Origin: a virus
IMG/VR virus record: IMGVR_UViG_3300026518_000040
Location: 1 to 30,864 of that record
Length of the DNA: 30,864 bases
Strand: one strand, 5' to 3'
The translations under genes and the position numbers were made by a program. This document shows, one piece after another, positions 1,385 through 30,264 of this stretch; the stretch's first letter is position 1, and every line of letters begins with the position of its first letter. The notes beneath the pieces were generated by a model, which ran no database searches, was not told where the DNA came from, and saw nothing but the letters and a program-made list of their open reading frames with translations.

Positions 1385-1402
1385 GGCTAGGAGTAAGTAA
1401 TT

Positions 1403-1486: not shown

Positions 1487-1518
1487 GTATTTTATTAATA
1501 TATTTAATTGGGTAAAAA

Positions 1519-1788: not shown

Positions 1789-1828
1789 TAATGACAATGT
1801 TAATTTAAATTTTAATAAAGGTATAGTT

Positions 1829-2606: not shown

Positions 2607-3014
2607 TTAACCTACCCTTTCCCAAGTTTTTCCGTCTATACAATGAAAAATTTGTTTTCTTTCGACTTCTTTAAAGTCGCAATGGATAAAATTATTGTTA
2701 ACATATAGGCATACTCTTGTATAGGCGGAATCTACCATCAATTCCCACAATTCCCCAAACCTAGAAGATTCACAAGTTATATCAACTGCACCTTTTCCTT
2801 TATAGCAATGTTCTGAGTTACCACTTCTACCTTTTTGAAGCTCGTACCATCTAGGTCTATATCCGGAATGCCGGGAAATAATTATAGGGCTTTTAAGTTT
2901 TTCTCTAACTTTATTTAGCTCAGGTATATGATACTTTTCTATTTTTTCCTTAACATCAGAAAGTAGAGCTATCTCTGGTTTATGAAACTCAGATAAACTA
3001 AAATAATTTTTCAT
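2607..3014 (-). CDS. endolysin, M15-family peptidase
   Basis: A 135-residue enzyme of the phage M15 group (D-Ala-D-Ala carboxypeptidase/VanY-like fold), expected to cut the peptide cross-links of peptidoglycan at lysis. The zinc site is visible: S-G-Y-R-P marks the substrate-binding loop, S-E-H-x(6)-G-A-V-D-I supplies the first His and Asp, and I-H-C-D-F supplies the last His near the C-terminus. There is no signal peptide, so it should need the holin for export. The ATG at 3014 has GGGAG 5 nt upstream. A GTG four codons earlier is less likely. It ends the late block and converges on the deaminase gene 4 nt away. Confidence 0.88.
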   Translation of the reverse strand: MKNYFSLSEFHKPEIALLSDVKEKIEKYHIPELNKVREKLKSPIIISRHSGYRPRWYELQKGRSGNSEHCYKGKGAVDITCESSRFGELWELMVDSAYTRVCLYVNNNFIHCDFKEVERKQIFHCIDGKTWERVG

Positions 3015-3213
3015 GGCGGCTCCCACTTGTTAATTTCCAAGAATCAAAGTTCTTAGGGTTTTGTAAAAGTTTTAATTTTACCATATTTCTAACTTTTCTG
3101 CAACAATTCAGTGTAAGAGGTTCATCTAGCCTTCTAGTGGCTACTGTAACTCCTTTATATATGAAAGATACAATGGTTACTTGTTTTTGTGCCATTGGAT
3201 AAGAGTATTGCAT
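2998..3213 (-). CDS. 71-residue hypothetical protein in the lysis cassette
   Basis: A small basic protein between the outer spanin and the endolysin, overlapping both (3177-3213 and 2998-3014). An N-terminal beta-hairpin pattern (V-T-I-V-S-F-I-Y-K-G) is followed by T-R-R-L-D-E-P-L-T-L and a Lys/Leu-rich helix. No membrane segment is present. The ATG at 3213 has AGAAGG upstream. A second ATG at 3195 (M-A-Q-K) matches the start of the conserved-looking part but lacks a ribosome-binding site. The lysis-gene position suggests a lysis or late function, but none is known to me. Confidence 0.55.
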   Translation of the reverse strand: MQYSYPMAQKQVTIVSFIYKGVTVATRRLDEPLTLNCCRKVRNMVKLKLLQNPKNFDSWKLTSGSRHEKLF

Positions 3214-3455
3214 TGATTTTTAGCCTTCTTATATTTATTAATGGTTTGGGTTAAGTAATTTATAAGGTCGATTTCCCTAACATTTGATCTATTATTCTTT
3301 TCTTTCCCTGTTCCTTTAATTGGCTGAAGTTGCTCTATATCAGTTAATAAGTTATTTTCCGGTTCCCTACATATCCTTGATGTAACTGTTGAGCAACTGT
3401 TTAGTATGCTTAGAAAGATTGCAAACACTGTCGATTTTTTTATATTTTGTAACAT
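3177..3455 (-). CDS. Rz1: outer-membrane spanin lipoprotein (Rz1-like)
   Basis: A 92-residue protein beginning inside the Rz-like gene in another frame and running past its end. The N-terminus has a basic start, a hydrophobic core and the lipobox L-N-S-C with the modified Cys at residue 21, so it should mature as an outer-membrane lipoprotein facing the periplasm. Together with the inner-membrane partner it would fuse inner and outer membranes in the last step of Gram-negative lysis. The mature part is charged and Asn/Lys-rich rather than the Pro-rich sequence of lambda Rz1, and longer than lambda's. The assignment rests on position, overlap and lipobox. Confidence 0.72.
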   Translation of the reverse strand: MLQNIKKSTVFAIFLSILNSCSTVTSRICREPENNLLTDIEQLQPIKGTGKEKNNRSNVREIDLINYLTQTINKYKKAKNQCNTLIQWHKNK

Positions 3456-3687
3456 ACATAGGCACCTTTTTAATAACTATTTTAGTTTTGGTAGCTCTTG
3501 TTTTTTCAAGATTTTCTAGTTTTAAAGATAATTCCTTATTCGTCTTATCGTTTTCCTCTAGTATTTTTCTGTCTTTGACAAGTAACTTAGCTTTTTCTGC
3601 TTCTGATTGTAAATTTCTTAAAGCATAACCAGAACTAAAACCAAGAAGCAAAGAGATACTACAAGAAATAAGTATAACCTGTAACAC
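3367..3687 (-). CDS. Rz: inner-membrane spanin (Rz-like)
   Basis: A 106-residue protein with an N-terminal membrane anchor (about residues 3-22), a long charged coiled coil (about 26-62), a short basic linker, and a C-terminal helix with one Cys near C-N-L. This is the topology of i-spanins: anchored in the inner membrane with the body in the periplasm. The Rz1-like gene is nested out of frame over its 3' end, the classic arrangement. It follows the holin with its start overlapping the holin stop. A Cys in the anchor (L-I-S-C) resembles a lipobox but lies too near the N-terminus. Confidence 0.75.
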   Translation of the reverse strand: MLQVILISCSISLLLGFSSGYALRNLQSEAEKAKLLVKDRKILEENDKTNKELSLKLENLEKTRATKTKIVIKKVPMYVTKYKKIDSVCNLSKHTKQLLNSYIKDM

Positions 3688-3959
3688 TAATCTTCCTCTG
3701 GGGTTTTATTCAAGGCGCTGTCCAAACTATAACCTATACCAAAGGCTATTGCAAAGGTTTGTTTAGATAGTTCAATATCACCAGCAGCATAAAGAGCTGT
3801 AATCGCAGCGAAAATGGATATAACAGAGTTTTTAGTAGCGTTTCTATGCTTTAACATATAATTTTTAAAACTACTTAAAGTTTGTTTGCGAGTTCTTTTC
3901 TTTAACCAATGAAGAAAAAGACCAAAATAGGCAGTTAGAATTAAAGTTATGAAGCTCAT
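3687..3959 (-). CDS. phage holin
   Basis: A 90-residue membrane protein with two hydrophobic helices, about residues 2-19 and 44-61, separated by a strongly basic segment (K-K-R-T-R-K-Q), a third moderately hydrophobic region at about 66-80, and a charged C-terminus (T-P-E-E-D). Size, topology and position at the head of the spanin/endolysin genes fit a pore-forming holin that times lysis. The basic loop followed by S-S-F-x-x-Y is typical of a holin type seen in lambdoid-like phages. The gene ends exactly where the Rz-like gene starts. Confidence 0.75.
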   Translation of the reverse strand: MSFITLILTAYFGLFLHWLKKRTRKQTLSSFKNYMLKHRNATKNSVISIFAAITALYAAGDIELSKQTFAIAFGIGYSLDSALNKTPEED

Positions 3960-4003: not shown

Positions 4004-4330
4004 CTACGTCCCTACAGATAATTTTAAATCTCCAGCTCTTCTAGGATATATTTGAATATTACCAGCAGAATCAGTATAGGTTAGTTTAACATCATATACC
4101 CCTTGTTCAGTGAAGGAGTTTGCACTTCTATTTAAAGTAAACGTCCCGTTACTAGCAACATCTATACTGGCAGATGTAAAATTTACTGTGGTTCCTGTTT
4201 CTGGGTTAAAAGCACTTGCAGATATGCCTGAGGCACCTGTAACATCTATAGGGCTGTCTGTAGAAGAGTCATATAATTGAACAGTTAGTGGGTAACTAGA
4301 CCCTATTTGTGAATATATTATAATAGTCAT
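4004..4330 (-). CDS. small beta-sandwich fibre-associated protein
   Basis: A 108-residue protein rich in Thr, Ser and Gly, predicted all-beta. It follows the pattern of small Ig-like or BppU-N-like tail proteins: V-Q-L-Y-D-S-S-T-D-x-P-I-D-V-T-G near the start, a central T-V-N-F strand, and G-x-Y-D-V-K-L-T-Y-T-D-S-A-G-N near the end. It overlaps the repeat fibre upstream by 4 nt (ATGA), so the two are coupled. A protein of the same size and apparent fold follows the other repeat fibre at 29588. It probably caps, chaperones or attaches the fibre, but this is inference. Confidence 0.6.
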   Translation of the reverse strand: MTIIIYSQIGSSYPLTVQLYDSSTDSPIDVTGASGISASAFNPETGTTVNFTSASIDVASNGTFTLNRSANSFTEQGVYDVKLTYTDSAGNIQIYPRRAGDLKLSVGT

Positions 4331-5292
4331 AGTTTAAACCTAATTTTTTCTACATCAATAAATTTTATTTTTGTTGTGTCGTTTATAAATTTTGAAGCGC
4401 TTGAGTTATTAGACCATGTTACTCTAATTTTGGCAGGCGCTACTAACGGTTGCAAACGTATAGATCCTGTACTGTTAGAAACCACATAACTCTGTAATAA
4501 AGTAGCTGTTGTTAATGAAGTTGCAGAATTATCTATAGAAGCTGCCGTGCCTGATACATAAATTTGCTGTAAAAAGTTAACTTGACTGTTATCGTTGGAA
4601 GAAACAACAGTTTTAGGAGTTACTATAGTTGTAAGATAAGCATTTACTTGGTCAGTGGTAGTGGATGTGGATGTTGTTGTTGTGCTAGTCTTAACAAGAA
4701 ATTGGGTGGAGTCAGAAAAGACACCTGTTCCACCTGTTACTGGGGTTAATACATATAACTGGCTGTTACTTGCATCAGTAGAGGTTGCAGTAGCGCTTGC
4801 ATGTACTCCGTTTTGGAAAACTACTATGGTAGTTATTTCATTACTAGCACTTGTAGAAGCTACTCCCCCAACTATAACCATTGCAGAAGCTATATCACTA
4901 GAGAAAGCGGTAGAATTTGGTGTTACCTTCGTTGTTAAGGAAAATAAATTAACCTCATTTGATATTGCTGTTGATGAGGATAAAGTTTTAGTAGCTACTG
5001 AAAAACTAGCAACATCATTTGAAGCTGCACCTGAGGAAGCTGTTATCCCATTATGCGAGACAAGTAAAGAAGAAATCTCGTTACTGCCTTGTGTACTATG
5101 TGTAGTAACGGAGAAGGATACGTTACTAGCTGAAGTTTCTGTAGAAGCTACAGCACTTGCGGCAAATATGGTTCCTAGGGCTAAAGCAAAAACACTAGAT
5201 GTAGATGAACTGGCAGTGCTAGTTACTTTTATTGGAGGGGAACTACCTATATCTGCTACAGGTGCGTTTGCTACTGGTGAAAATGCTGTCAT
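4327..5292 (-). CDS. Ser/Thr/Ala-rich repeat fibre protein
   Basis: A 321-residue low-complexity structural protein lying among the tail-tip genes. Residues about 57-262 are a degenerate repeat of about 20 residues marked by S-N-E/D followed by a hydrophobic strand (see the repeat entry), as in beta-solenoid or beta-prism fibres. The last 60 residues are different, with a Trp-containing strand and a basic end that could be an attachment or folding domain. No signal peptide or enzyme motif is visible. It lies 2 nt from the glycine-rich tip gene and overlaps the downstream beta-sandwich gene. A tail fibre or tail-surface decoration role is inferred from context and composition. Confidence 0.6.
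   Translation of the reverse strand: MTAFSPVANAPVADIGSSPPIKVTSTASSSTSSVFALALGTIFAASAVASTETSASNVSFSVTTHSTQGSNEISSLLVSHNGITASSGAASNDVASFSVATKTLSSSTAISNEVNLFSLTTKVTPNSTAFSSDIASAMVIVGGVASTSASNEITTIVVFQNGVHASATATSTDASNSQLYVLTPVTGGTGVFSDSTQFLVKTSTTTTSTSTTTDQVNAYLTTIVTPKTVVSSNDNSQVNFLQQIYVSGTAASIDNSATSLTTATLLQSYVVSNSTGSIRLQPLVAPAKIRVTWSNNSSASKFINDTTKIKFIDVEKIRFKL
4507..5124 (-). repeat. about ten degenerate 20-residue repeats in fibre gene
   Basis: In the fibre encoded at 4327-5292, a motif of Ser/Thr, Asn/Ser/Thr and Glu/Asp recurs near residues 71, 92, 112, 132, 151, 173, 193, 214, 233 and 254, a period of 19-22 residues. Each copy is followed by four to six beta-type hydrophobic residues and then Thr/Ser-rich turns. 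The repeat is clear in protein and weak in DNA, so it is old or under protein-level selection rather than a recent tandem duplication. Confidence 0.6.
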
Positions 5293-5293
5293 T

Positions 5294-6178
5294 TTAGTAT
5301 TCTATTAGGACTAATCCATCCCCGCCTAAAGCAGCTGTACTATTTATAACTCCTGCTCCGCTACCTGTAGATGGGGTTGCATTTGACCAATTACCATCTC
5401 CGCTACCTCCTGATTCTGGGGTTCCGGGTGCTGGTTTTGACCCTTCTAAAGCTCCCCCGGAGCCTAATTTCCCTAAGGAGTTAGTTCCTCCATTATTTCC
5501 GTTTCCTGATTTACCTGCCCCAGAGCCCCCAGATGCTAGGGATGAAAGTACTCCAGAACCCCCAGTTTTTAAAATATCTCCTATAATACCCGAACCCGGA
5601 GATGTGCCTGTAGCACCTGCAGCAGAGACTAAAGTAGTAGGTATGGAGTCATTAAAAAGAGATGTACTTTCTGCTGCCCCTACGGTAATAGAATAAGATT
5701 CGCCGGGGGTTACTGAAATTATTTTAGAAGCATATCCCCCACCACCCCCCGAGCGACTATTTGCTACTGAGGTTCCACCACCCCCAATACAATGCACTTG
5801 CAATTTATATACATCAAGCGGAACAATAAAAGTATAAGTTCCCGCTAAATTGTATGTAGTGTAATCTGTAAACATATTTACCCCATTAAAAATATCAGCC
5901 ACATAAGTGCTGAAAATGTTTTTAGTTCCAGTTCCAAAATTAACCAAAACATTGTTATTACTGGATGACAATACAGTTGTTCTGGAAAGCGTTGTGCCGT
6001 TAAAAGTTCCTATTCCTGTTTCCCATAATGTTCCATCTTCTATGCAATAGTAAACCTGGTCGCCATTGGAAAATGCATTGGCAAAAGACTGGAATCCCTG
6101 AACTGCTCCTCCTAGAGTTACTGCTCCTGTACCTGTAGTTGTGGTTGTTTCTTTAACCCTATCTGCTAATTTCGGCAT
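5294..6178 (-). CDS. tail fibre/adhesin with glycine-rich tip domain
   Basis: A 294-residue protein with two parts. Residues 1-95 match a widespread phage tail N-terminal module ([11 protein letters not shown]-x-G-T-G, then F[13 protein letters not shown] and T-L-S-R-T-T-V-L), probably for virion attachment. Residues about 110-294 form a glycine-rich domain with I-G-G-G-G, a run of five Gly, and G-S-G/G-G-S-G loops before a hydrophobic end (G-L-V-L-I-E-Y), as in phage adhesins whose poly-Gly loops contact the receptor. It follows the tandem-domain tail protein by 6 nt. It is the best candidate here for the distal receptor-binding protein. Confidence 0.75.
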
Positions 6179-6184
6179 GGTTAT

Positions 6185-6985
6185 TTACCCGATCGTGTAA
6201 TCAAAATTACCTACTGCAATAGATGGTGCAGCATCGCCATTATTTACAGTTACGCCAGTGAAAGACCCATAAGTAATTAGGTTTGTTCCAATATATACCC
6301 CAGCAGCTACTACCGTTCCCCAAGATGCGCCTACAGGGGCAGGAAAAAGAATTGCGTTGGTATTTTGTGTATGTCCATCCCCAGATACTGTAGCATCAAA
6401 GGCAGTATCCGCAGGTATTACACTAGCTCTAGAGTACGCACCACCACTAACTTCAATACCTCCGCCTGCCGCTGTAGGAGCTGTGGTAAATAGGGCAAAA
6501 CTTAAAGACGTTGGTTTGGTAAACGCTACGCCTCTAAATAACCAATCAGCCATAATTTGTGCGAGGTAGTTAGTTGTGTAGGTAAAGTTAAATGTAAAGG
6601 CATTTATAGGCCATTCAGGAGCAGGACTAGAAGCGCCAATAACCTTACTTGCATCTAATACTCCGTAGGCAAGTAGGTTCCCTCCGGTTGGCTGGTCGTA
6701 AATACCCCAGTGAGTAGCTGTTCCCCATGCACCAGAAGGGGCGTTAAAGGTAATAGCTACTGCATTCTTAACTGTTTGTCCTGTTCTGGAGAAGTTAGTT
6801 ATGTTTCTAGCCATACTTACCCGGGCATATCCATTAGTAAAGCTAAATTCTGACACTGCCCCTGTTTCTCCGTTTGTTACACCTGATAGAAAGGCGAAAT
6901 GCAGGTTAGTTGGGGGAGTATAGCTTGCTGTCCTAAAAATATGGTTTATTATTTGGTTTTCTGTATAGTCTGTTAACGCTGCCAT
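6185..6985 (-). CDS. tail fibre protein with two tandem domains
   Basis: A 266-residue protein made of two copies of a phage tail domain of about 125 residues. The first (about 1-130) has L-H-F-A-F-L-S-G-V-T-N-G-E, G-Y-A-R-V, and W-G-T-A-T-H-W-G-I-Y-D. The second (about 140-266) starts A-D-W-L-F-R-G and repeats the order: L-S-F-A-L-F-T-T-A-P-T, G-G-A-Y-S-R-A, then W-G-T-V-V-A-A-G-V-Y. This family is common in siphovirus tail tips and is thought to be structural. It follows the hub gene directly. The duplication seems old, because the copies keep only the motif framework. Confidence 0.7.
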   Translation of the reverse strand: MAALTDYTENQIINHIFRTASYTPPTNLHFAFLSGVTNGETGAVSEFSFTNGYARVSMARNITNFSRTGQTVKNAVAITFNAPSGAWGTATHWGIYDQPTGGNLLAYGVLDASKVIGASSPAPEWPINAFTFNFTYTTNYLAQIMADWLFRGVAFTKPTSLSFALFTTAPTAAGGGIEVSGGAYSRASVIPADTAFDATVSGDGHTQNTNAILFPAPVGASWGTVVAAGVYIGTNLITYGSFTGVTVNNGDAAPSIAVGNFDYTIG

Positions 6986-13900: not shown

Positions 13901-14182
13901 TGCAAGAGGGGCCTGTGTTGTAGCACCTGTTGTAAAACTACCTACCCCAGATAGGGCTAATTGTGTTTTAAGAGTATTTAGCTTTTTTAATGAATCAGCA
14001 GCTATTTTAACAGAATGAGTCCATTCTTCTACACCTTTCTTGTTAATAGTATAAACAGAAGTTAAATTAGTTACTTTGGCACCTAACTTATCTGTTTTAG
14101 AAGTTATTTTATCTAAAACAGCGTCCCCGTCTGATGTGGTTTTTATCCGTAACTCTAGTGTTTTATTTGTTTTCTGCGCCAT
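10904..14182 (-). CDS. tape measure protein
   Basis: A 1092-residue protein, the longest in the window with the hub. A conserved tape-measure domain lies at about residues 310-500, with I-E-L-Q-T-T-K-A-V-L-E-S-T-L-G, T-L-R-E-N-F-R-N-L-N-A-S, and the Q-L-G-N-L-L-P-G-A-F-A-R-F segment. Long charged coiled-coil stretches flank it (about 100-290 and 690-960), and hydrophobic segments lie at about 555-615. It runs through the tail tube and sets its length. At roughly 0.15 nm per residue, as in characterised phages, the tail would be near 160 nm. Its start overlaps the end of the frameshifted chaperone by 20 nt, as usual. Confidence 0.92.
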   Translation of the reverse strand: MAQKTNKTLELRIKTTSDGDAVLDKITSKTDKLGAKVTNLTSVYTINKKGVEEWTHSVKIAADSLKKLNTLKTQLALSGVGSFTTGATTQAPLAESVAAYKAYKRERETISKALLANVRKELKEEEAAEKERVKQGISLRKQQAQQYRDILSAKNTRQANVEAENQRLLAANKRTIALQKAIIAKGANDIIVVRLKAAEKARLIEEKLQKDLADISKRSAEGSLKNRVAAQTKVFSKFRRESLEIAKNLQKVEVEEAKVVKLNKDILAAKRKVRAEQDRVNRSIARGSREQVHWAVKIAEGIGLYRVFNAVVNTTVAAISAVPRIGIELQTTKAVLESTLGSGAKVAAVFSGLNQEAQRTGIDIGTLRENFRNLNASMGLAGESTQTVWDLFTNLNTVTTALHLPADKVKLTFLAISQIFNKTKVQSEELVKQLGNLLPGAFARFQKANADLFPSTQDLAKSMKAGLVFAHDTMVKFVRQMAIDFKAGFAIAQSGLQAAIGRYKTSLIHLGETVFAQTKDSMTAVLSVVTDLVNGLNRILKGTDAISVSIKEVGKVGLALLVGGITQAVLQSKLLRVIWGNIVDLIALARKQLGPILFIAGLLEIIKQNEKYANVLGQIAKIQHTIAKETKLANATAAERLKINLQDDPSVVAAKERLRLVKKFIRLTKLKAKIEKDLFFFTFSSTKYKLVSGQLALSLAKKQLKIAKDNAKTAQENATAEEKARAAEQRRSATLKKLNSLVKEYSDAQYAASKNIKDSLVTLKEQYDNNLLTVEDYYKEKQRLQLKDLDTQIETAKTQLKILQSSDTVDTAALRKQLKIIDSLKSSRRNLAISLENEKKKALETANLETAKILANLRGTEQDHYNLELLQLKKSRDEQLNLVKGNQEARAVIEQNFQNKLLDLNSKRFNAVKSNLAAINQVETQAAQQRVQTEINAAKSIVKAQNEIAVAKKASSVGQVTSLSQLEQLAILALAKEGIFRQNNTLTFDSSVQTKVAELAKKLPAFATGGSFTVGGNGAVDSSLVAFRATKGEKVIVQTPNQQVTTPTNDTNIHINNLSLPNVSNYQEFISELKQQLRVNPNLLQTTGTLAG

Positions 14183-15019
14183 TAGATACTTGTCTTGCTG
14201 CTAATAGAATGTTAGCGAATCCATTATGTATATGAGCTAGTCTATAATAAGTTTTTTGGGCGGGAAGATTATGTTCTTTTACAATTTCTATCATAACGGC
14301 AGGGTCTATAGAGTAATCTTCTCCACGAAGGAATAGGTATATAACTTTATACACAGAAAAAAGCAGTTCATTATCTTCATCGAGATAAAAATAAACTGCT
14401 TCTATTTCTTCTTTTTCCTCTTCCTCTTGAGCTAATTCAGGAAACTCATCGGCTAAAGATTCTTCCTCTTGCCTTCTTTTATCTATTTCTGCCTTCTGAG
14501 TTTCCCATAAAGTAGCTTTTCCAAGAGCTTCCCCTGCCTCTATGAGTTTTTTAGTTGCTCTGCCTCGTAATCTACATTAAGTAATGCTTTTTGTAGAGCA
14601 GTAATAAGGGACGACCTCCAAGGAGCCGCAGATAAATATAGATCTAGGAGGGCGGCTAGACATTCGTCCGAAGTCCCCCAGAAGTCGTCATTAGGTTTAG
14701 CTTTCCGTGTATCAGGAACAACAAGCTCAATAGTTTTATCGTTTTCACTATCATAAATTTCTAGTTTTGCTTGCTTTATATAAATAACTTGGCTCTTGAT
14801 GTAAGCATCTATTTCTTTTGAAGCTAAACTACCATCTTTCATATCTTCTATCTGTTGTTCCAGAAGTTCTTGGAAAGTAGTTAGTTCTTTTTCGGCTTCT
14901 TCAAGTTTATACCTTTTAAACCCTACTACGATTTTGTCAGTTGCCCCACTCGAATCTTTAGCTTTGATAGTAAGCTCAATTACCGGCGTTTGTAATTTTA
15001 CGAAAAGTTGTTTTGCCAT
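14163..15019 (-). CDS. tail assembly chaperone GT fusion (-1 frameshift)
   Basis: The long form of the tail chaperone, made by a -1 shift at 14546-14552. The first 158 residues are those of the short form (14540-15019). After the slip, translation re-reads base 14546 and continues open to the TAA at 14163-14165, adding 127 residues for 285 in all. The added part starts L-I-E-A-G-E-A-L, has a very acidic stretch (repeated E-E-E) and ends in a helical domain. Lambda-type siphoviruses make G and GT this way to hold the tape measure during tail assembly. The open -1 frame, slippery heptamer and position immediately before the tape measure agree. Confidence 0.85.
14540..15019 (-). CDS. tail assembly chaperone G (short form)
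   Basis: A 159-residue protein between the tail tube gene and the tape measure. It has a beta-rich N-terminus (I-E-L-T-I-K-A, then V-V-G-F-K-R-Y), a helical acidic middle, and a C-terminal domain (D-D-F-W-G-T-S-D-E-C-L-A-A-L-L-D-L-Y) that looks like the conserved core of this chaperone. It terminates at TAG two codons after the slippery site, so most ribosomes should make this form. It coats the tape measure and recruits tube subunits but is normally absent from the finished virion. Confidence 0.82.
   Translation of the reverse strand: MAKQLFVKLQTPVIELTIKAKDSSGATDKIVVGFKRYKLEEAEKELTTFQELLEQQIEDMKDGSLASKEIDAYIKSQVIYIKQAKLEIYDSENDKTIELVVPDTRKAKPNDDFWGTSDECLAALLDLYLSAAPWRSSLITALQKALLNVDYEAEQLKNS
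14546..14552 (-). other. programmed -1 frameshift site A AAA AAC
   Basis: Read on the minus strand in the G frame, the codons CTA AAA AAC precede TCA TAG, giving the slippery heptamer A AAA AAC in the correct register. Slipping back one base at AAA and AAC opens the frame that runs to 14163. I see no strong downstream hairpin, only a weak AGAG/CTCT pairing. The heptamer is an efficient bacterial slippery sequence by itself. Confidence 0.85.
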
Positions 15020-22786: not shown

Positions 22787-24736
22787 TTATTTGTATAGGT
22801 AATTTTCTATTGCTTGCCAATTTGCATGACTATAGTTCCTAAGCCCTATTGCGTAACTGGCGTGAAGAGCATTCTTTTCCGCGTCCATCGCTTCTTTTCT
22901 TTTACCCGGAATAAGTTTAAATACGGACTTATTATAGCTACTTCGACTATCTATAATCTTTCTGCAAGAAGTCATTTGCTCTTCATATCCACCATAACTT
23001 TGCTCATTGAAGTAGTAAACATTCTTTTTAATGTCCCTATTCAGGTTTAAAGAAACTCTGCGCAGTATCTCTTCATGTGCGCGATGGGCTCCTAGTGGAA
23101 AAACAGTTACCCCCATTGTCTCAGCGAGACTTCTTCTAAGTTGCTTATCTCTTTCTACATCTAATTGGCTAGGTTCCCTATATATTTCATCATCAGACCA
23201 TCTAAGATCACGAACGCCTTTAGTAGCAAAAACTTGCGGATTATGTTCCTGCATCTTTCTAACCCATTTATAGACAAGCTCTGTATTATCTCCAGAATCA
23301 ATGGACACTGCTGCGATATTTAGATATTTTCCTGAGGCATGAGGAATCTTAGCTGTGACTGTTTTATCTGTAAGTTCTTGCCAAACCGGGTCATCTTCAT
23401 CTAGTACATTTCCAAATATTTCTTCCCATTTAACTAGCCAAGAGTTATTATTTCTTCCCCAAGCCCGAATTATATAACCAAATCTATTATCCTGAACGTC
23501 TGTTCCAACAGTAAGAACTAGCCCATCCATAGGAACAATACCTTCTGGATAATTACTTCTAAGTTTCTTCATTTCATCGGCTTCGAGTGAAGAAATACCA
23601 CTAGCATAAGGAAGTCCGTCACTATTATTTCTAAAAGACTTCATCAACCCTTCGTTACTTCGTTGTAAAGCTAGTTCTGCAAGTATCTTTTTCTCTGCAA
23701 GCTCTACAAAGGTAGAACTAGATAAAGTAGAAAGCAATTCCGGTATGTGGAAACCAAAAATCTCTGTTATATCTGGTCTTTTAGGATGCCAACCTTTGGA
23801 GAACCTACCTGTGAAATCTGTAAATCCGAACTTTTTACCTGCTTCAATATTTTTGTTCTTTTCTTTAAACGACCAAACACCTTCACAATGAGGGCAAGTA
23901 TAGTAAGCTGTTTCTGGATTATATTTTCCGTAAACTTCATCAATGTATCTATCTGGGTATTCATCATAATGGATGTTATCTGTAGATAGCTCACTTAATT
24001 CTCCACAATGATGGCATTGGGCTTTGAAGACTAGCTGATTTGATTGCTTGTATCCTTGTTCTACCCTAGAAAAATCTTTATCCGTAGGAGTTCCGCCAAA
24101 AATAAGTTTCTTAAAGCCAATAGGAAAAGTTTTCTGCCTACCTTTTAAGTTTTCTAAAGTGTCACCTTGACCTCTAACATCATCCTTAACATCATCAGGC
24201 TCTTCAACCCCTATAAAAGGAATAGAACTTGTTTTAGCAGCAGAAATACTTCCCAGTGTAGTTAGTTTAAGAAAGCCGCCCGGAAATTTAAAATAGGAAA
24301 AACTCTCTTTTGCTACATTAACGTTAATAATATCTCGCAGAACCTTTGTTCCTTCAAAAAATGGTTTAAGTTTCTCCCGAGAATATACCTTCGCTGGTTC
24401 TAATGAAGGAAAAGCCCATTGCATCTTAGAAGGATTAGTATGGATATTCCGACCAATAACATTATTAGTTAGCTCACTCCAACCAATCTGGCTACCTTTC
24501 ATAGCAACAACAACGTAAATTAACCTGTTATCACAGCACTCATAGATATATTCTAAAGCTGGAATCTTTCCACAATCAAATTTACCTATATGATGGGATT
24601 CTTCAGAGGTTAAAACCCGGAAGGTTTCCGCCCATGCAATAGTAGGCATACGAACAGCTGGCTTAAGCAAAGAAAGAAGTTGGCCGATGAACCGTCTTTC
24701 CGAAGTATTTTTAAAAGAACGAGTAATTTTACCCAT
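22787..24736 (-). CDS. terminase large subunit, GpA family
   Basis: A 649-residue packaging motor and nuclease. The ATPase half has the divergent P-loop K-G-S-Q-I-G-W-S at 80-87 and the acidic Walker B-like pair E178-E179 after F-I-G-V. A zinc knuckle lies between the halves (C241, C244, C281, C284). The nuclease half begins around V-L-T-V-G-T-D-V-Q-D-N-R-F-G with D413 as a likely metal ligand, and I-A-A-V-S-I-D-S-G-D further on. Length matches lambda A (641). It cuts concatemers and drives DNA into the prohead with the small subunit encoded just upstream. Confidence 0.93.
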   Translation of the reverse strand: MGKITRSFKNTSERRFIGQLLSLLKPAVRMPTIAWAETFRVLTSEESHHIGKFDCGKIPALEYIYECCDNRLIYVVVAMKGSQIGWSELTNNVIGRNIHTNPSKMQWAFPSLEPAKVYSREKLKPFFEGTKVLRDIINVNVAKESFSYFKFPGGFLKLTTLGSISAAKTSSIPFIGVEEPDDVKDDVRGQGDTLENLKGRQKTFPIGFKKLIFGGTPTDKDFSRVEQGYKQSNQLVFKAQCHHCGELSELSTDNIHYDEYPDRYIDEVYGKYNPETAYYTCPHCEGVWSFKEKNKNIEAGKKFGFTDFTGRFSKGWHPKRPDITEIFGFHIPELLSTLSSSTFVELAEKKILAELALQRSNEGLMKSFRNNSDGLPYASGISSLEADEMKKLRSNYPEGIVPMDGLVLTVGTDVQDNRFGYIIRAWGRNNNSWLVKWEEIFGNVLDEDDPVWQELTDKTVTAKIPHASGKYLNIAAVSIDSGDNTELVYKWVRKMQEHNPQVFATKGVRDLRWSDDEIYREPSQLDVERDKQLRRSLAETMGVTVFPLGAHRAHEEILRRVSLNLNRDIKKNVYYFNEQSYGGYEEQMTSCRKIIDSRSSYNKSVFKLIPGKRKEAMDAEKNALHASYAIGLRNYSHANWQAIENYLYK

Positions 24737-24737
24737 A

Positions 24738-25451
24738 TTACAACACCGGTTCTGGCAAGCTATCTATAGAGATGTCAGACAAGTCAATTTCTGTTTTCAT
24801 AACAGTGTCAATGAATTTATCACTATCTCTGTCTGCCTGTTCAACCAAAGTAACTCCTAACTTATAAAGGTTATCCATTATTTGGTCTACTTGTTTCTGT
24901 ACTGTTTCGTTTTCAAGGGAAATAGAAAGAAGGCTTTGCCGAATAGTCATAATTAAAGGTTCGCAAAGTTCTGTTAATTCCTCAATAGATAAATACTCTC
25001 CTCTTTCTATAGAAGCTTTAACCCATAATTGCTGTTCCCTAGCCCGACCCAAACGAATATCTTGTTTAGTTTTAGCTGCCATGAGCGGAGGCATACCATC
25101 GTCTAGCTCTATTCCGCCGAAGTCTCTTCCCTTACTTTCCCTTGCTTTTTCTTCTGCTTCTAACTTTGCCCTATACTTTCTTTCTTTAAACTCCAAATCC
25201 TTCTGTAACTTTGCTTCTTTTAATCTTGCTTCGTTTTTTTCCTTCTCTATCTTTAAATCTTGGTTCTTTTTAAAATGGTTAATATACTTCTGTAATGCTT
25301 CTCTATACGTATGTTCAATTATAGGGCTAGGTAGCCTGCCAGCTTGGCATTCCTGATATATAAGAGATACATTACAACCGATTATAGAAGCTAAAATAGC
25401 TGGGGAACAATTGCTATCAAGGTTTATTATTGCTTCTTGCTTTCCTTCCAC
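24738..25451 (-). CDS. terminase small subunit, Nu1-like
   Basis: A 237-residue protein directly before the large terminase (1-nt gap). Residues about 10-60 look like a winged-helix DNA-binding domain (S-P-A-I-L-A-S-I-I-G-C-N-V-S-L-I-Y-Q-E-C). A long charged coiled coil follows (about 60-108), then R-L-G-R-A-R-E-Q-Q-L-W-V-K-A and further helices, with an acidic end (E-I-D-L-S-D-I-S) probably for binding the large subunit. It should recognise the packaging site. The start is GTG with AAAAGG (25460-25465) 8 nt upstream. It is the first gene of the late block. Confidence 0.82.
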   Translation of the reverse strand: MEGKQEAIINLDSNCSPAILASIIGCNVSLIYQECQAGRLPSPIIEHTYREALQKYINHFKKNQDLKIEKEKNEARLKEAKLQKDLEFKERKYRAKLEAEEKARESKGRDFGGIELDDGMPPLMAAKTKQDIRLGRAREQQLWVKASIERGEYLSIEELTELCEPLIMTIRQSLLSISLENETVQKQVDQIMDNLYKLGVTLVEQADRDSDKFIDTVMKTEIDLSDISIDSLPEPVL

Positions 25452-25506: not shown

Positions 25507-25535
25507 TTGCTTTTTTATGTAAAAACGGTTATACT
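25507..25535 (+). promoter_or_regulatory. sigma70-type promoter for the second structural operon
   Basis: In the divergent gap before the plus-strand operon, TTGCTT (25507-25512) is followed by a 17-nt spacer and TATACT (25530-25535), about 46 nt before the likely start codon. A small imperfect inverted repeat (AAGGAA at 25483-25488, TTCCTT at 25503-25508) overlaps the -35 element and could be an operator. No equally good promoter is seen toward the terminase. Confidence 0.5.
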
Positions 25536-25580
25536 TGGGTAAAAGTGTAGCAAAAATTGGGCAAAATAGCAAGTGAATCT

Positions 25581-26072
25581 ATGTTTAATACAGATATAAC
25601 CAGACGCCTAGAAAATCTCGAGGAAAAGATACAAAAACATGATGACCAAACGGCCAAGTCTGCTATAGTTGAAGCTGAACTATCATCACAAATAAAAGAA
25701 CTAGCTTCGTTTCTAAAAGAATTTGTACACAAGGAAGAAACTTTTATGAAGGAACAAAGAAATAGAGAAAAAGATTCTTACTTGGAAAATACAAAGATTT
25801 TAGAAAAGATACGTTCAGACATTCACACTATAAAGTCAGACCTTTCCTCTCAACCCAAAGATATGGAAGTTCTATTGCTTAAACAAAAAGATGAAATAAA
25901 AGATTACTGCAGAAAGACTTTCGCTACAAATGAAGAACTTACAGAAGGATTATCTAGTATCAGAAAACAAGCCAAATTGCTATGGGTAGTTATAATGGCT
26001 GGCTTAGCTGGTACTGCATGGATTATTGATGAAATAACCAAACTCGCAAACTTAACAAATATAGGAAAATAA
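25581..26072 (+). CDS. coiled-coil protein with C-terminal membrane segment
   Basis: A 163-residue protein opening the divergent plus-strand operon. About 120 residues are charged coiled coil starting with R-R-L-E-N-L-E-E-K-I, and one hydrophobic helix near the C-terminus (W-V-V-I-M-A-G-L-A-G-T-A-W-I-I) anchors it, leaving a short polar tail. Such proteins in phage structural operons have been proposed as spanin-, holin- or entry-related factors, but this is not shown here. The ATG at 25581 is preferred. A TTG at 25557 would add eight residues, and neither has a strong ribosome-binding site. Confidence 0.6.
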   Translation: MFNTDITRRLENLEEKIQKHDDQTAKSAIVEAELSSQIKELASFLKEFVHKEETFMKEQRNREKDSYLENTKILEKIRSDIHTIKSDLSSQPKDMEVLLLKQKDEIKDYCRKTFATNEELTEGLSSIRKQAKLLWVVIMAGLAGTAWIIDEITKLANLTNIGK

Positions 26073-26073
26073 A

Positions 26074-26493
26074 ATGGCTAATGCTTTATATCCAAAATGG
26101 AAAGAAACACTTTTACAAAATGATGCTAACAGTGCATTAAATAGTGCAGAAGGTGCTACAGGTGTATATGTTGCTCTTATAGACACAGGAGTATACACCT
26201 ACTCATCTGCGCATCAATTTTATAGTAACCTCTCTGGTATTGTTGGAACAGATCAAGAAATTCTAACTAAAACCCAACTAAATGGTCTGTTTGATGGAGC
26301 AAACGTAACTTTCCCATCTGTCACAGGCAACTCTGTAGAAGCTATTGTGCTTTACAGAAAGAATGCTGGAGCTAATACAACTTGGCCGTTAATCATGTAT
26401 ATGGATACTGGTGTTACTGGGCTTCCTACCGCTGCTTTAAGTGCCACAGACGTAACTATTACTTGGAACGCTTCTGGAATCTTCCAATTATAA
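26074..26493 (+). CDS. tail-fibre-like structural protein
   Basis: A 139-residue protein 1 nt after the membrane coiled-coil gene. Its layout matches phage tail proteins of the kind also seen at 6185-6985: a start helix (Y-P-K-W-K-E-T-L-L-Q-N-D-A), V-Y-V-A-L-I-D-T-G-V-Y-T-Y-S, a hydrophobic middle with N-V-T-F-P-S-V-T-G-N, V-E-A-I-V-L-Y-R-K-N, and an ending with V-T-I-T-W-N. It is probably virion-associated. The specific family and site in the virion are not certain. Confidence 0.6.
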   Translation: MANALYPKWKETLLQNDANSALNSAEGATGVYVALIDTGVYTYSSAHQFYSNLSGIVGTDQEILTKTQLNGLFDGANVTFPSVTGNSVEAIVLYRKNAGANTTWPLIMYMDTGVTGLPTAALSATDVTITWNASGIFQL

Positions 26494-26502
26494 AAAAATA
26501 TT

Positions 26503-26931
26503 ATGAAAGACTACAGTGTTTTAAAAACAAAATTGGCTGACCCTGCTATTACTGGATTAGCGGGTGATAGAGCGCGAATGGGTGCGCTTAATGCTAAAAC
26601 AATAGTAGCAAAAGTACCTATTCCTGTAATTGCAATAGAAAAATATCTAGCAGCTTCACATAAATATATCCCAATTGTAGATAGCGTTGATACAAATGCT
26701 CGTGAAGCAACTCTTGCATTAGATAAATTCACCAGTTTCGACACGAGTAATCCTACTTATCTAGCTACTTTAACTACTATTCTTGATAATTTGGTTACAC
26801 TTAATTTGCTAACCTCAGCAGATAAAACATACATTTTAGGTATGGCTGATACAATGATTAGCTGGTCTGAGCAGAACTGGTCGGGAGATATCACGTTAGA
26901 AGATATTGCTATTGCAAATGGAGTGGCTTAA
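26503..26931 (+). CDS. 142-residue helical hypothetical protein
   Basis: A soluble protein of mostly helical character. The opening (M-K-D-Y-S-V-L-K-T-K-L-A-D-P-A-I-T-G-L-A-G-D) recalls a group of small phage proteins that begin with L-K-x-x-L-x-D-P-x-x-x-G and follow tail fibre genes, but the match is only to the pattern. The second half has L-T-S-A-D-K-T-Y-I-L-G-M-A-D and a Trp-rich W-S-E-Q-N-W-S. It lies in the second structural operon between the fibre-like protein and another small helical gene that it touches by one base. Function unknown. Confidence 0.55.
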   Translation: MKDYSVLKTKLADPAITGLAGDRARMGALNAKTIVAKVPIPVIAIEKYLAASHKYIPIVDSVDTNAREATLALDKFTSFDTSNPTYLATLTTILDNLVTLNLLTSADKTYILGMADTMISWSEQNWSGDITLEDIAIANGVA

Positions 26932-27131
26932 TGACTAAAACAGAAACAAAAGTAATACAGAGAACATTAAAACTTGCTATAGCTACGCTGGAATCTATGG
27001 AATCTTCTACTAATAATACAAAATTAATAGAGTTACTAAATACACTGTCGCTTTCTCTAAATGATGAAAATACTAATCAGGTTTTCGCATTGAGTAGGTT
27101 ATTACAACTTATAACTAATGGTATTGGATAA
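26931..27131 (+). CDS. 66-residue helical hypothetical protein
   Basis: A small protein rich in Leu, Thr and Asn, predicted as two or three helices (V-I-Q-R-T-L-K-L-A-I-A-T-L-E-S-M and L-L-N-T-L-S-L-S-L), with no Cys. It starts on the last base of the preceding gene and ends on the first base of the next, so the whole set is one translated unit. No family recognised. It could be a chaperone or assembly partner for the neighbouring structural proteins, as small helical genes beside fibre genes often are. Confidence 0.5.
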   Translation: MTKTETKVIQRTLKLAIATLESMESSTNNTKLIELLNTLSLSLNDENTNQVFALSRLLQLITNGIG

Positions 27132-27544
27132 TGGCTACTTTATATGCTGGTTATTCAGCAGCCGCAGATATAACCCCAAGTGACCTAGCAAGTTTACCTA
27201 ATACAGGTGTTTCTTCTGCAGGTTTAGAGCAAAATAACACAACTACAAGATACATATCTGCTCAGTTAACTTTTAGTCTTACTGGCTCTGCAGGGAGTAC
27301 GGGTACAGTTGATGTTTATATCTTACATGGTAATGTCACGGGAGCTGAAGCTGATGCCTTAAACAAAACAATATTAGGCTCAATAACTCTTAACAGCGCA
27401 ACTGCTGTAAAGAAAACATTGACCTTTGATTTTGAAACTGTATCTGCTTTTTGGAAACTCTATATAGTTAATAATTCTGGCGGAAATTTAGCTGCTACAG
27501 GTAATTCAGTTACTGTTGTTGGTTATAATCCAACTGATGTATGA
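27131..27544 (+). CDS. 137-residue beta-rich structural protein
   Basis: An all-beta-looking protein with alternating strands: Y-I-S-A-Q-L-T-F-S-L-T-G-S, G-T-V-D-V-Y-I-L-H-G-N, K-K-T-L-T-F-D-F-E-T and F-W-K-L-Y-I-V-N-N-S-G-G. This resembles jelly-roll modules common in phage tails and decoration proteins, though I cannot name the family. The stop overlaps the next start by ATGA. Its place next to the LamG fibre suggests a virion surface component. Confidence 0.55.
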   Translation: MATLYAGYSAAADITPSDLASLPNTGVSSAGLEQNNTTTRYISAQLTFSLTGSAGSTGTVDVYILHGNVTGAEADALNKTILGSITLNSATAVKKTLTFDFETVSAFWKLYIVNNSGGNLAATGNSVTVVGYNPTDV

Positions 27545-27699
27545 CTATGATTAGATTCTGGCCTCTTTATAATGAGCGCAAATGGTTAATCAATATGATT
27601 AATGGTCACAAGAAAATGGTTATTCATTTTGAAAAACTATTATGTGACATTGAGACCAGGACAGAGCGCGGGGAACATTATTTGAGGACAGATAAATGA
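27541..27699 (+). CDS. 52-residue basic hypothetical protein
   Basis: A short gene overlapping its neighbours by 4 nt on both sides (ATGA at 27541-27544 and 27696-27699), which is strong support. The product is basic and helical with R-F-W-P-L-Y-N-E-R-K-W-L near the start and R-T-E-R-G-E-H-Y-L-R near the end. Its second half carries several CpG steps, unlike most of the window, and so does the following LamG domain. The two may have been acquired together. No function is recognised. Confidence 0.55.
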   Translation: MTMIRFWPLYNERKWLINMINGHKKMVIHFEKLLCDIETRTERGEHYLRTDK

Positions 27700-29591
27700 C
27701 GTTTTTTGTGCCGCGGTGGGAGCGGTTTAAAGATAAAAAGCCGACTACGCCGCAAGAGATAGATTGGTCTAATGAGCTAACTGATGGGTTAGTATTAGCA
27801 GCGTATCCATCAGAACCAAAAACAATCGATTTAGTTGCTCAACAGGTCTCTAGCCGTGGCGCGCAAAACGCTATATATATCGGAGACGATGGTCTTGTAA
27901 CGCGCTATGATAACAATTACGATGCATTTCCAGGAACGCCGTTAGAAACTGTTTCAGAATATTCAGTCACTATGCGTTGTGGTATGGATAATACGAGCAG
28001 TTGGGGTTGGAGCGGGTTATTTGGAAAAATAAACCATGCAGCCAATTTTCTCACTGGATTTAAAGTATATAACTATTGGGGTTCAAATCAGTTTAATTTT
28101 AGCAATTTAACTACAGATATTACTTTAACGGGACTGTATTCTGCCTTAATATCAGCGAAGTTATCTACTTTTACATTAAATGTCGATAAATCAAACTTAC
28201 TATCGCTTACCCATGAAAAAAACACGCTTCTCAGTCTGATTAATGTAGGGGTGACGACACCGGGTGTTGGCGATTTTCTGGTATTTGGTAATACTGATGT
28301 TCAACAATCTTACGGGCAAGTAGCCTTCACCTTAGCTCATGCAAGAAGTTTATCCTCTGATGAAATAGTCGCACTCCACGAAGCCCCCTACCAAATCCTA
28401 AAACCCCACAGGAAATGGTTTATTTTTGGCAGCACAACCACAACATCAACATCTCTTACACCAACTTTACTAACAAACCAAAACACCTTACTACTTCTAT
28501 CTGTTCAAACAACAACAAAACTATCCCCATCCTTAGTAACAAACACATCTACAGAATTTACTCCAACAGTAGTTAATAATATTGCTATATCCCCAGCATT
28601 ATTTACAGAAACAAATACTTTTCTTTCCCAAACCGCAGGAACAAAAACAACACTAACACCACAAACTGTTGTAAACAACCAAACTTTCTTTTCCACAACA
28701 GTTGGGATAGGCAATAATCTTGCCCCACAGCTTGTAGTAAACAGTAATACTCTGTTTTCCCCAATTGCTAAAACAAAAACATCTTTAACTCCTCAAGTTG
28801 TTACCAATATCCCTACATTTCTTTCTGCAACAATAGGGACGGGTGGAAATTTAGTACCTCAGCTAGTAACAAATGTTAGTTATTTCTTTTCCCCAACGGT
28901 TAAAGGAAAAGTTACTTTACAGACTGGGTTAGAAACAAACACAAGTACTTTATTTTCTCCAAGTATTGTAACAGGTGTAAACTTATCAGCAACTTTGGTA
29001 AATAACCAAAACAGCCTGTTTAACCCAACTGTTTCCACTGCAACGACTGTTACACCAAGTTTATTATATAACCAAAGTAATATTTTCTCTCAGGTTGTTA
29101 CAACAGGGATAACTTTATCACCTAATCTGCTAGCCAACCCAAGCAATATATTATTCCCACTTGTTAATGTTTCTGGCTCAGCTTCGATTTCTCCTAACTT
29201 ATATGTAAACAACCAGACTTTATATCCAGCTACAGTTAACTTAACTAAAATTAATTTAGCAGCAAGTTTAGTAACAAGCAGCCCTACTATTTATTCTGCT
29301 GTTATCACAACAGGTAAAACGCTTCAAGCTTCCGTTTTTCTAAACAATACACAGTTATTTGCTCCAAATATATTTAAAACGGATAAGCTGCTCCCAACTG
29401 TATTAGCTAACCAATCTGTGTTTTACTCCAGTATAGTTACAGCTCCAGTTGCAATTACCTTAACACCAAACCTAGTAGTCAATTCCTCTGTATTTTACTT
29501 ACCTAATGTAAATGTTCCTTCAGTTTCTGCTCCATATACGCTAGAATATACAGCTAGTCTTCCAGAACCCTACACAGTAATTTTAAAATGA
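27696..29591 (+). CDS. LamG-domain tail fibre with 22-residue repeat shaft
   Basis: A 631-residue two-part protein. Residues 1-240 resemble a concanavalin-like (LamG) domain: T-D-G-L-V-L-A-A-Y-P near the start and A-H-A-R-S-L-S-S-D-E-I-V-A-L-H-E-A-P-Y-Q-I-L at the end, the usual C-terminal signature of phage jelly-roll domains. Residues about 250-600 are some 16 copies of a 22-residue unit forming a repetitive shaft, and the last 30 residues are distinct. The first part is CpG-rich and the second almost CpG-free, so the gene looks chimeric. It probably binds host-surface glycans. The following beta-sandwich gene overlaps it by ATGA. Confidence 0.72.
   Translation: MTFFVPRWERFKDKKPTTPQEIDWSNELTDGLVLAAYPSEPKTIDLVAQQVSSRGAQNAIYIGDDGLVTRYDNNYDAFPGTPLETVSEYSVTMRCGMDNTSSWGWSGLFGKINHAANFLTGFKVYNYWGSNQFNFSNLTTDITLTGLYSALISAKLSTFTLNVDKSNLLSLTHEKNTLLSLINVGVTTPGVGDFLVFGNTDVQQSYGQVAFTLAHARSLSSDEIVALHEAPYQILKPHRKWFIFGSTTTTSTSLTPTLLTNQNTLLLLSVQTTTKLSPSLVTNTSTEFTPTVVNNIAISPALFTETNTFLSQTAGTKTTLTPQTVVNNQTFFSTTVGIGNNLAPQLVVNSNTLFSPIAKTKTSLTPQVVTNIPTFLSATIGTGGNLVPQLVTNVSYFFSPTVKGKVTLQTGLETNTSTLFSPSIVTGVNLSATLVNNQNSLFNPTVSTATTVTPSLLYNQSNIFSQVVTTGITLSPNLLANPSNILFPLVNVSGSASISPNLYVNNQTLYPATVNLTKINLAASLVTSSPTIYSAVITTGKTLQASVFLNNTQLFAPNIFKTDKLLPTVLANQSVFYSSIVTAPVAITLTPNLVVNSSVFYLPNVNVPSVSAPYTLEYTASLPEPYTVILK
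28443..29510 (+). repeat. sixteen degenerate 66-nt repeats (22 residues)
   Basis: Each unit follows about T-x-x-x-L-x-P-x-L-V-x-N-x-x-T-x-F-S-P-x-V, with L, P, L, N, T/S and F/Y as the fixed positions. Most units are exactly 22 residues; two near the C-terminal end are longer. Copies differ greatly in DNA, so this is not a recent tandem array. Period and strand-turn pattern suggest a beta-solenoid or beta-prism fibre shaft. Confidence 0.85.
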
Positions 29592-29923
29592 TGCCAACAA
29601 AAGTACATATATTTAAAAAACACGGGGATACTAAACAGATTATATTCCATGTTGTTTCTAAAGACGCGCCAACAGGGGTTAATCTAAATGGATGGGCGAA
29701 CTTCGTTCTACGAATTGACCCAAATGAGTTTCCAACGAACGGAACTAGCTTGGTAGAAACTATCTCTGGGGTAATAGTTGATTTAGGAAGCGGGAAAGTA
29801 GGTTTTTCGCCTAGTGGGAATGTCCCTACTGGAAATTACTTTTATAATGCCAGAGGGACAGATGCAGCTGGAGGGATTTTCACTTTTGCACAAGGTAAGT
29901 TTGTTGTAGAAGGGGACATATAG
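29588..29923 (+). CDS. small beta-sandwich fibre-associated protein
   Basis: A 111-residue all-beta-looking protein following the LamG fibre with ATGA overlap. It starts with K-V-H-I-F-K-K-H-G-D-T-K-Q-I-I-F, continues with W-A-N-F-V-L-R-I-D-P and ends with Y-F-Y-N-A-R-G-T-D-A-A-G-G-I-F-T-F-A-Q-G-K-F. This matches Ig-like/BppU-N-like tail modules. The gene pairing repeats that at 4004-5292 on the other strand. It may attach or fold the fibre, or lie on the virion next to it. Confidence 0.6.
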   Translation: MMPTKVHIFKKHGDTKQIIFHVVSKDAPTGVNLNGWANFVLRIDPNEFPTNGTSLVETISGVIVDLGSGKVGFSPSGNVPTGNYFYNARGTDAAGGIFTFAQGKFVVEGDI

Positions 29924-29928: not shown

Positions 29929-30264
29929 TTATTCATTCTCCTTTAACTCCATTAACCTGTATAACCAATCAAAAGCTTGGTTACTCTTTACTTGGTCAGG
30001 GGTAACTCTAAGAACAGTCCAACCTAAACACATAGCTTCTGAATACTTAACTATATCGGCTGTAAAACCTTTTGGATTAGTATGGCGAGATTGTCTTTTG
30101 CCTTTTAACCAAATCCCGCCTTCGACTTCCGTGGCTAATTTATACTCAGGCCAAGCAAAGTCAAATCTCCATTTTCTACTTGGATGGAACCTAAACTCCC
30201 TTTTAAAATCAGGAAAGTTATACTTAATTAACTTTTTAGCAAAATTCTCTTCGATATAGCTCAT
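29929..30264 (-). CDS. PD-(D/E)XK-type endonuclease (Vsr-like)
   Basis: A 111-residue protein with the core of small phage nucleases. R-F-D-F-A-W-P-E-Y-K-L-A-T-E-V-E-G-G-I-W gives the catalytic Asp and E-x-E pair, followed by a basic segment, R-H-T-N-P-K-G-F, then D-I-V-K-Y-S-E-A and G-W-T-V-L-R-V-T as the final strand. This order fits Vsr/MutH/VRR-NUC relatives often seen near the ends of phage genomes. Its substrate is unknown: it might nick DNA for repair, recombination or host defence evasion. It overlaps the preceding gene by ATGA and converges on the beta-sandwich gene 5 nt away. Confidence 0.75.
   Translation of the reverse strand: MSYIEENFAKKLIKYNFPDFKREFRFHPSRKWRFDFAWPEYKLATEVEGGIWLKGKRQSRHTNPKGFTADIVKYSEAMCLGWTVLRVTPDQVKSNQAFDWLYRLMELKENE

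What the first reader, a model, noticed from the sequence alone, without database searches (positions are those of the whole stretch)
25507..29923. Second structural operon divergent from the terminase
Lambda-like phages normally keep virion genes on one strand. Here a promoter-led plus-strand operon upstream of the small terminase carries a membrane-anchored coiled coil, a tail-fibre-like protein, two helical unknowns, a beta-rich protein, a 52-residue unknown, a LamG fibre and a beta-sandwich protein, all within 1-10 nt of each other except one. The ensemble is not a set I recognise and is the best candidate here for an undescribed virion-surface or entry system.
Basis: partly seen in the sequence, partly recalled or inferred. 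Interest (0 to 1): 0.65.

Follow-up and report, generated by a model that had tools for sequence, protein, structure and literature searches.

The report
Phage adhesin operon opposite the terminase
A compact set of eight genes on the strand opposite a phage's DNA-packaging genes most likely builds the tail appendages that grip the host cell; the position is shared by a large group of uncultured phages, but the genes themselves are mix-and-match members of known tail-protein families.

Summary
The operon is real. Eight plus-strand genes (25581-29923) lie end to end, diverging from terS. Seven of eight have coding-like codon usage, and across the clade the intergenic region holds promoter-like sites in both directions beyond chance. 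It is most likely a late tail-adhesin module. g2 is a homologue of the 'tail wing arm' gp31 of mycobacteriophage Bxb1 (profile E 3e-10 to PDB 9D93). g8 belongs to phrog_1084, whose members in sister phages also match 'L-shaped tail fiber assembly' families. g7 is a LamG-like domain plus ~17 copies of a 22-residue repeat. g1 (coiled coil, C-terminal TM) occupies the slot where relatives carry holin/hemolysin-like membrane proteins, so it is more likely lysis-linked than surface-exposed. The divergent arrangement is clade-wide (33 of 36 metagenomic relatives at >=41% TerL identity; none cultured), but content is mosaic: only g2, g3, g5 and the g7 N-terminus persist in the nearest relative. A g3-x-g5-g7 cassette also occurs in a phage with an unrelated terminase. 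In sister phages the divergent unit can hold lysis genes or tail-core genes including the tape measure. Not a new entry system: a conserved layout variant carrying known kinds of parts.

The parts
25507..25535 (+). Divergent-operon promoter candidate TTGCTT-17-TATACT
   Evidence: Same layout at the same place in L004 (TTGCTT-17-TATAAT). Over 23 clade intergenic regions the mean sigma-70 score exceeds all 5000 shuffled sets. Weak when scanned alone.
25544..25572 (-). terS-direction promoter candidate TTGCTA-17-TACACT, overlapping the divergent one
   Evidence: terS-direction scores also exceed the shuffled sets clade-wide.
25581..26072 (+). g1: 163 aa (171 if TTG 25557 is the start), long coiled-coil-like region then one C-terminal TM. 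Positional equivalent of the holin/hemolysin-like first genes in relatives
   Evidence: Hydropathy 1.85 over residues 139-157. phrog_3556, unknown function, E 2e-4. No homologue in viral contigs by this search. First gene of the divergent unit in relatives: LydA holin in L005, phrog_689 holin in L104, phrog_937 hemolysin in L106.
26074..26493 (+). g2: 139 aa, phrog_644, homologue of Bxb1 tail wing arm gp31; tail-appendage adaptor
   Evidence: phrog_644 E 2.7e-15; 269 relatives in viral contigs; profile hit to PDB 9d93_Ra E 3.3e-10; 54% to Pam2 'minor tail subunit'.
26503..26931 (+). g3: 142 aa, conserved with the fibre cassette, function unknown
   Evidence: 47% to L012/L004 and 51% to L251, same order. 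No PDB, PHROG or cultured-phage match.
26931..27131 (+). g4: 66 aa small protein, orphan; unrelated small genes occupy this slot in L012 and L251
   Evidence: No hits. The slot in L012 holds a phrog_3342 protein.
27131..27544 (+). g5: 137 aa, predicted beta-rich from composition, conserved with the fibre cassette
   Evidence: 42% to L012 and 41% to L251, same order. No PDB match.
27541..27699 (+). g6: 52 aa, ATGA-coupled on both sides, coding status doubtful
   Evidence: Negative codon-usage score. Absent between g5 and g7 in L012 and L251.
27696..29591 (+). g7: 631 aa; N-terminal anchor-like segment (about 33 aa) + LamG-like domain (to about residue 245) + about 17 copies of a 22-residue repeat; likely the main host-binding fibre
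   Evidence: N-terminus conserved in L012 and L251. Laminin_G_3 in the L251 homologue E 0.0015. 22-residue period. Repeat shared with Pam2_68 E 2e-26.
29588..29923 (+). g8: 111 aa, phrog_1084; likely Ig-like fibre-anchor protein
   Evidence: phrog_1084 E 4.7e-5. Family members in sisters also hit phrog_3304/15373 'L-shaped tail fiber protein assembly'.
4004..4330 (-). Second phrog_1084 protein, at the far end of the minus-strand tail operon
   Evidence: phrog_1084 E 6e-9; 19% identical to g8.
5294..6178 (-). Fibre-like protein whose N-domain homologues sit next to g2 in other phages and in the divergent unit of four sister phages
6185..6985 (-). phrog_240 protein; N-terminus matches a virion-associated protein of PDB 8jou
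   Evidence: Adjacent to the g2 homologue in Pam2.
2607..3959 (-). Lysis genes (M15 endolysin, two spanin-like, small TM protein); homologues of three of them are in the divergent unit of L006
24738..25451 (-). terS, start of the divergent head-tail operon
   Evidence: phrog_57 E 3e-6.

Best explanation
The plus-strand unit is the phage's divergent late operon for tail-tip appendages (host adhesion), probably led by a lysis-linked membrane protein. Inferred working: both late units start from back-to-back sigma-70-type promoters between terS and g1. g8 (Ig-like, BppU/p132-type anchor) and g2 (wing-arm-type adaptor) attach an adhesin, g7, to the tail end. g7's short N-terminus docks it, its LamG-like domain or the long repeat region contacts the cell envelope, and everything after the first ~33 residues is replaced between relatives as host range changes. 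g3 and g5 are co-inherited accessory or assembly proteins. It is the same appendage set that other phages keep in one cluster; here it is split between the end of the minus-strand tail operon (4004-6985) and this divergent operon. Shown: operon structure, homologies, conserved position, mosaic content. Inferred: late expression, presence in virions, who binds what, the lysis role of g1.
For: g2 to Bxb1 wing arm gp31 in PDB 9d93, E 3.3e-10 over ~100 residues, entry identity from PMC13148394 and PMC13243192. g8 in phrog_1084, with sister members also matching L-shaped tail-fibre assembly families; T5 p132, the collar that anchors the L-shaped fibre, has an Ig/BppU-N fold (PMC10038345). g7 LamG-like with 22-residue repeats shared with Pam2_68, which lies in a tail-like cluster with g2, p240 and phrog_1084 relatives. 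Divergent unit conserved in 33 of 36 clade loci with fibre, collagen-like and tail-fibre-PHROG proteins. Fibre gene replaced after ~33 aa in L004/L012. fib5294 homologues lie in the divergent unit of L102, L108, L109 and L123. Paired promoter signal.
Against: No direct evidence that any of these proteins is in virions. g3, g4, g5 and g6 have no characterised homologue. Both structure predictions failed (pLDDT 37 and 29), so Ig-like and LamG folds rest on sequence families. g8's own family match is modest. The link of g1 to lysis is positional.
Confidence: 0.75

Rival explanations
1. Accessory (moron-like) operon that modifies the host surface or lysis from inside the cell, e.g. a superinfection-exclusion or lysis-control cassette, and not virion parts.
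For: g1 is a predicted membrane protein. Sister divergent units include lysozyme, holins and spanins. Small orphan genes g4 and g6.
Against: g2 is homologous to a resolved virion protein. g7 has fibre-like N-terminal conservation with a swapped remainder. g8 belongs to a fibre-anchor-related family. Only g1 has a TM signal; g2-g8 do not look membrane-bound.
Confidence: 0.12
2. A genuinely undescribed virion-surface or entry apparatus built from all eight proteins.
For: g3 and g5 are co-inherited with g7 even into L251, a phage with a different terminase family, and have no characterised homologue.
Against: The eight genes are not a unit: g1 and g6 are absent and g4 is replaced in both other cassette carriers. 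The recognisable members are from known appendage families.
Confidence: 0.08
3. Chance inversion or assembly artefact in one contig.
For: Single IMG/VR contig of 30,864 b; tail operon and divergent unit are on opposite strands.
Against: The same divergence occurs in 33 of 36 related contigs, including a relative with the same genes in the same order (L004/L012), with a shared promoter region.
Confidence: 0.02

Closest known systems
Bxb1 tail wing (wing arm gp31, PDB 9D93)
   Same: g2 family is homologous to gp31 over ~100 residues.
   Different: No homologue of Bxb1 wing base or brush was identified here; g7 is LamG plus 22-residue repeats; the operon is divergent from terS.
T5 collar p132 / L-shaped fibre and TP901-1 BppU
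   Same: phrog_1084 proteins in sister phages also match L-shaped tail-fibre assembly PHROGs; T5 p132 is Ig-like and anchors the fibre (PMC10038345).
   Different: g8 itself hits only phrog_1084; fold not confirmed; no T5-like genome context.
Pseudanabaena phage Pam2 cluster (Pam2_61-68)
   Same: phrog_1084 member, collagen-like, p240 relative, g2 homologue (54%) and a 22-residue repeat protein in one cluster.
   Different: All on one strand in Pam2; repeats and adhesin are separate genes; no g3 or g5.
L251 (IMGVR_UViG_3300023439_000062) cassette
   Same: g3 - small gene(s) - g5 - g7 in the same order; 75-82% DNA identity to L012 over this cassette.
   Different: Terminase of another family (phrog_2 / phrog_51), cassette co-directional with terS and TerL, no g1, g2 or g8.
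Phage WO (Wolbachia) rearranged structural modules
   Same: GpA-type TerL relative (26%); structural modules occur in different orders and orientations (PMC9203015).
   Different: Prophages of endosymbionts; the divergent adhesin unit next to terS was not reported there in the passages read.

Membership tests
phrog_644 / Bxb1 wing-arm family (g2) | Significant profile match over most of the protein | tested here: met
   phrog_644 E 2.7e-15, residues 1-138; 9d93_Ra E 3.3e-10
phrog_644 / Bxb1 wing-arm family (g2) | Gene lies in a tail-appendage cluster | tested here: met
   Fibre-like gene directly downstream in several g2 loci; Pam2 cluster
phrog_644 / Bxb1 wing-arm family (g2) | Protein present in the virion | not testable with these tools
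   Needs proteomics
phrog_1084 / T5 p132-like anchor (g8) | Match to the family profile | tested here: met
   phrog_1084 E 4.7e-5, residues 1-111
phrog_1084 / T5 p132-like anchor (g8) | Match to L-shaped fibre assembly profile (phrog_3304) | tested here: inconclusive
   Met for sisters L096, L099, L008, L104, not for g8 itself
phrog_1084 / T5 p132-like anchor (g8) | Ig-like BppU-N fold | tested here: inconclusive
   Prediction failed, pLDDT 37
LamG / ConA-like lectin fibre (g7) | Pfam LamG match above cut-off | tested here: not met
   g7 none; homologue L251 19.1 bits against cut-off 27.6. LamG-like only, not filed as a member
XhlA / holin-type lysis protein (g1) | Profile match to a holin or hemolysin family | tested here: not met
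   No such match for g1; met only by positional equivalents L005, L104, L106
XhlA / holin-type lysis protein (g1) | Coiled coil plus C-terminal TM | tested here: met
   Hydropathy and sequence; coiled coil judged by eye
GpA-type TerL siphophage clade with divergent unit | TerL at least 41% identical and a multi-gene unit divergent from terS | tested here: met

The most novel reading that the evidence does not exclude
A large uncultured siphophage clade keeps a regulated divergent 'exchange slot' beside terS. Adhesin, lysis or tail-core modules are swapped through it from unrelated phages, and here it carries a new appendage sub-assembly (g3-g5-g7) that moves as a cassette between phages with different packaging machines.
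Probability: 0.25. Interest if true: 0.55.

Novelty: new variant of a known kind. Interest (0 to 1): 0.38.

Why it matters
It gives functions to most of an otherwise unannotated operon in a phage group with no cultured member. It shows that splitting virion genes into two divergent units is a stable clade trait, not an oddity, and it points to the place (between terS and the convergent end) where these phages exchange host-recognition genes, which is useful for predicting hosts and for finding adhesins in metagenomes.

Tried and rejected
Structure prediction of g7 residues 1-267 (3 sequences) and g8 (2 sequences) failed (pLDDT 29 and 37); no fold search was run on them. Scans for relatives of g3, g5, g8 and g1 from single sequences found none in viral contigs; g3 and g5 relatives came only through L004/L012 and L251. 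tblastn of p1084b, g3, g5 and the g7 N-domain in cultured phages: no match. PDB searches of g3, g5, g7, g8, u6997: nothing significant. Single-window promoter and terminator scans were at or below chance. Rejected: prophage-moron reading, assembly artefact, and 'eight genes travel together'. The greedy ORF caller is unreliable for GC-rich outgroup prophages, so the absence of the divergent unit there is only indicated by the large co-directional genes upstream. Literature searches for a description of this layout found no match; the library is open-access only.
Full report
WHAT IS THERE. The window is a 30,864-base IMG/VR virus record. Minus-strand genes run from terS (24738-25451) and TerL (22787-24736, GpA-type) through portal, protease, major head protein and tape measure to fibre-like genes and a lysis cassette ending at 2607. 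Plus-strand genes g1-g8 occupy 25581-29923, divergent from terS. Their spacing is 1, 9, -1, -1, -4, -4, -4 nt. Seven of eight score as coding in the annotated frame when judged by the codon usage of the phage's own head and tail genes; g6 does not. g1 probably starts at ATG 25581, not TTG 25557.

PROMOTERS. Simple scans of the window are at or below chance. Comparison helps. Across 23 terS/divergent-gene intergenic regions (near-duplicates removed), the mean best sigma-70 score is 8.70 in the divergent direction and 8.33 in the terS direction, against 7.71 for shuffles; none of 5000 shuffled sets reaches either. The related contigs are not independent, so this is support and not proof. In the window the candidates are TTGCTT-17-TATACT (25507-25535) and, on the other strand, TTGCTA-17-TACACT (25572-25544).

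THE GENES. g2: phrog_644 (E 2.7e-15), with 269 relatives in viral contigs. A 23-sequence profile finds PDB 9d93_Ra, 'Tail wing arm, gp31', at E 3.3e-10; 9D93 is mycobacteriophage Bxb1 (PMC13148394, PMC13243192). The nearest cultured homologue is Pam2 'minor tail subunit', 54%. In several other phages a homologue of the window's minus-strand fibre-like gene 5294-6178 lies directly downstream of g2 on the same strand. g7: a conserved N-terminal segment, a LamG-like domain (Laminin_G_3 at E 0.0015 in the L251 homologue, below cut-off) and a C-terminal region with a 22-residue period, shared with Pam2_68 at E 2e-26. g8: phrog_1084 at E 4.7e-5. A second member lies at 4004-4330 at the other end of the genome's structural genes. 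Members in the divergent units of L096, L099, L008 and L104 hit phrog_1084 at about 1e-21 to 1e-23 and also 'L-shaped tail fiber protein assembly' PHROGs. In T5 the protein that anchors the L-shaped fibre, p132, has an Ig fold related to the BppU N-terminus (PMC10038345); that g8 shares this fold is inference, as the prediction failed. g3 and g5 are found only in L004/L012 and L251, in the same order. g4 and g6 are orphans. g1 has one C-terminal hydrophobic segment and no informative homologue.

THE CLADE. A TerL profile search gave 36 loci with usable sequence left of terS at 41-85% TerL identity (several are near-duplicates). In 33 a multi-gene unit diverges from terS; the exceptions are L112/L113 (rearranged) and L110 (unclear). 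Where terS was not recognised by BLAST (L125-L127), the co-directional gene before TerL was taken to be terS. The best cultured relative is Marinobacter phage PS3 at 33%, whose genes upstream of terminase are co-directional. Outgroup prophages at 30-37% also appear co-directional, with large plus-strand genes upstream (the ORF caller is rough there). The only bacterial-genome record above 41% is a contig in a metagenome-assembled Roizmanbacteria bin, 54%.

CONTENT VARIES, POSITION DOES NOT. The first gene of the divergent unit is usually a small membrane protein: an 80-aa family in nine loci, a LydA-type holin in L005 (E 2e-18), coil-plus-TM proteins matching holin or hemolysin PHROGs in L104 and L106. 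g1 has that slot and topology. What follows is mosaic: phrog_1084 proteins, collagen-like and fibre proteins, or lysis genes: L006 carries phage lysozyme and homologues of the window's holin/spanin genes 3177-3959. In L120, L121, L122, L134 and L136 it holds the tape measure and neighbouring tail genes. In the nearest relative (L004 = L012, TerL 85%), g2, g3, g5 and about 33 residues of g7 are kept in order; g1 is missing, g4 is replaced, g6 is absent.

A MOVING CASSETTE. L251 carries g3 - small genes - g5 - g7 on the strand of its own terS and TerL, which belong to other families (phrog_51, phrog_2). L012 and L251 are 75-82% identical in DNA over ~1.07 kb of this cassette although their terminases are unrelated. 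This points to horizontal exchange of the fibre cassette.

INTERPRETATION. The evidence fits one appendage gene set that other phages keep together, here split between the end of the tail operon (phrog_1084, fibre, p240 at 4004-6985) and the divergent unit. Its likely job is host adhesion, with g1 tied to lysis by position. Presence in virions, timing and contacts are inferred. Nothing here requires a new entry mechanism; the noteworthy part is the stable, clade-wide divergent slot with exchangeable content.

Noticed in passing
window 14163-15019 (-): Tail-chaperone-like ORF (159 aa) ends just after a slippery-looking 'ctaaaaaactcatag', with a continuing overlapping frame before the tape measure: a possible programmed frameshift.
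   Followed up: no
L251 7876-8751 (+): TerL reading frame runs into Hint/intein-like sequence after about residue 227.
   Followed up: no
window 1-2000: Early plus-strand genes show extreme positive GC skew (0.52 and 0.37 per kb) compared with the rest of the window.
   Followed up: no
window 6185-6985 (-): N-terminus of the phrog_240 protein matches a virion-associated protein in PDB 8jou (E 8.5e-8), although PHROGs names the family 'head protein'.
   Followed up: partly
L120, L121, L122, L134, L136: In these TerL relatives the divergent unit contains the tape measure and adjacent tail genes, so head and tail genes are on opposite strands.
   Followed up: partly
L171: A contig binned as Candidatus Roizmanbacteria carries a 54% TerL; it may be a misbinned phage contig.
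   Followed up: no
window 29929-30264 (-): Small protein of phrog_503 with weak HNH-endonuclease-family similarity, convergent with g8.
   Followed up: no
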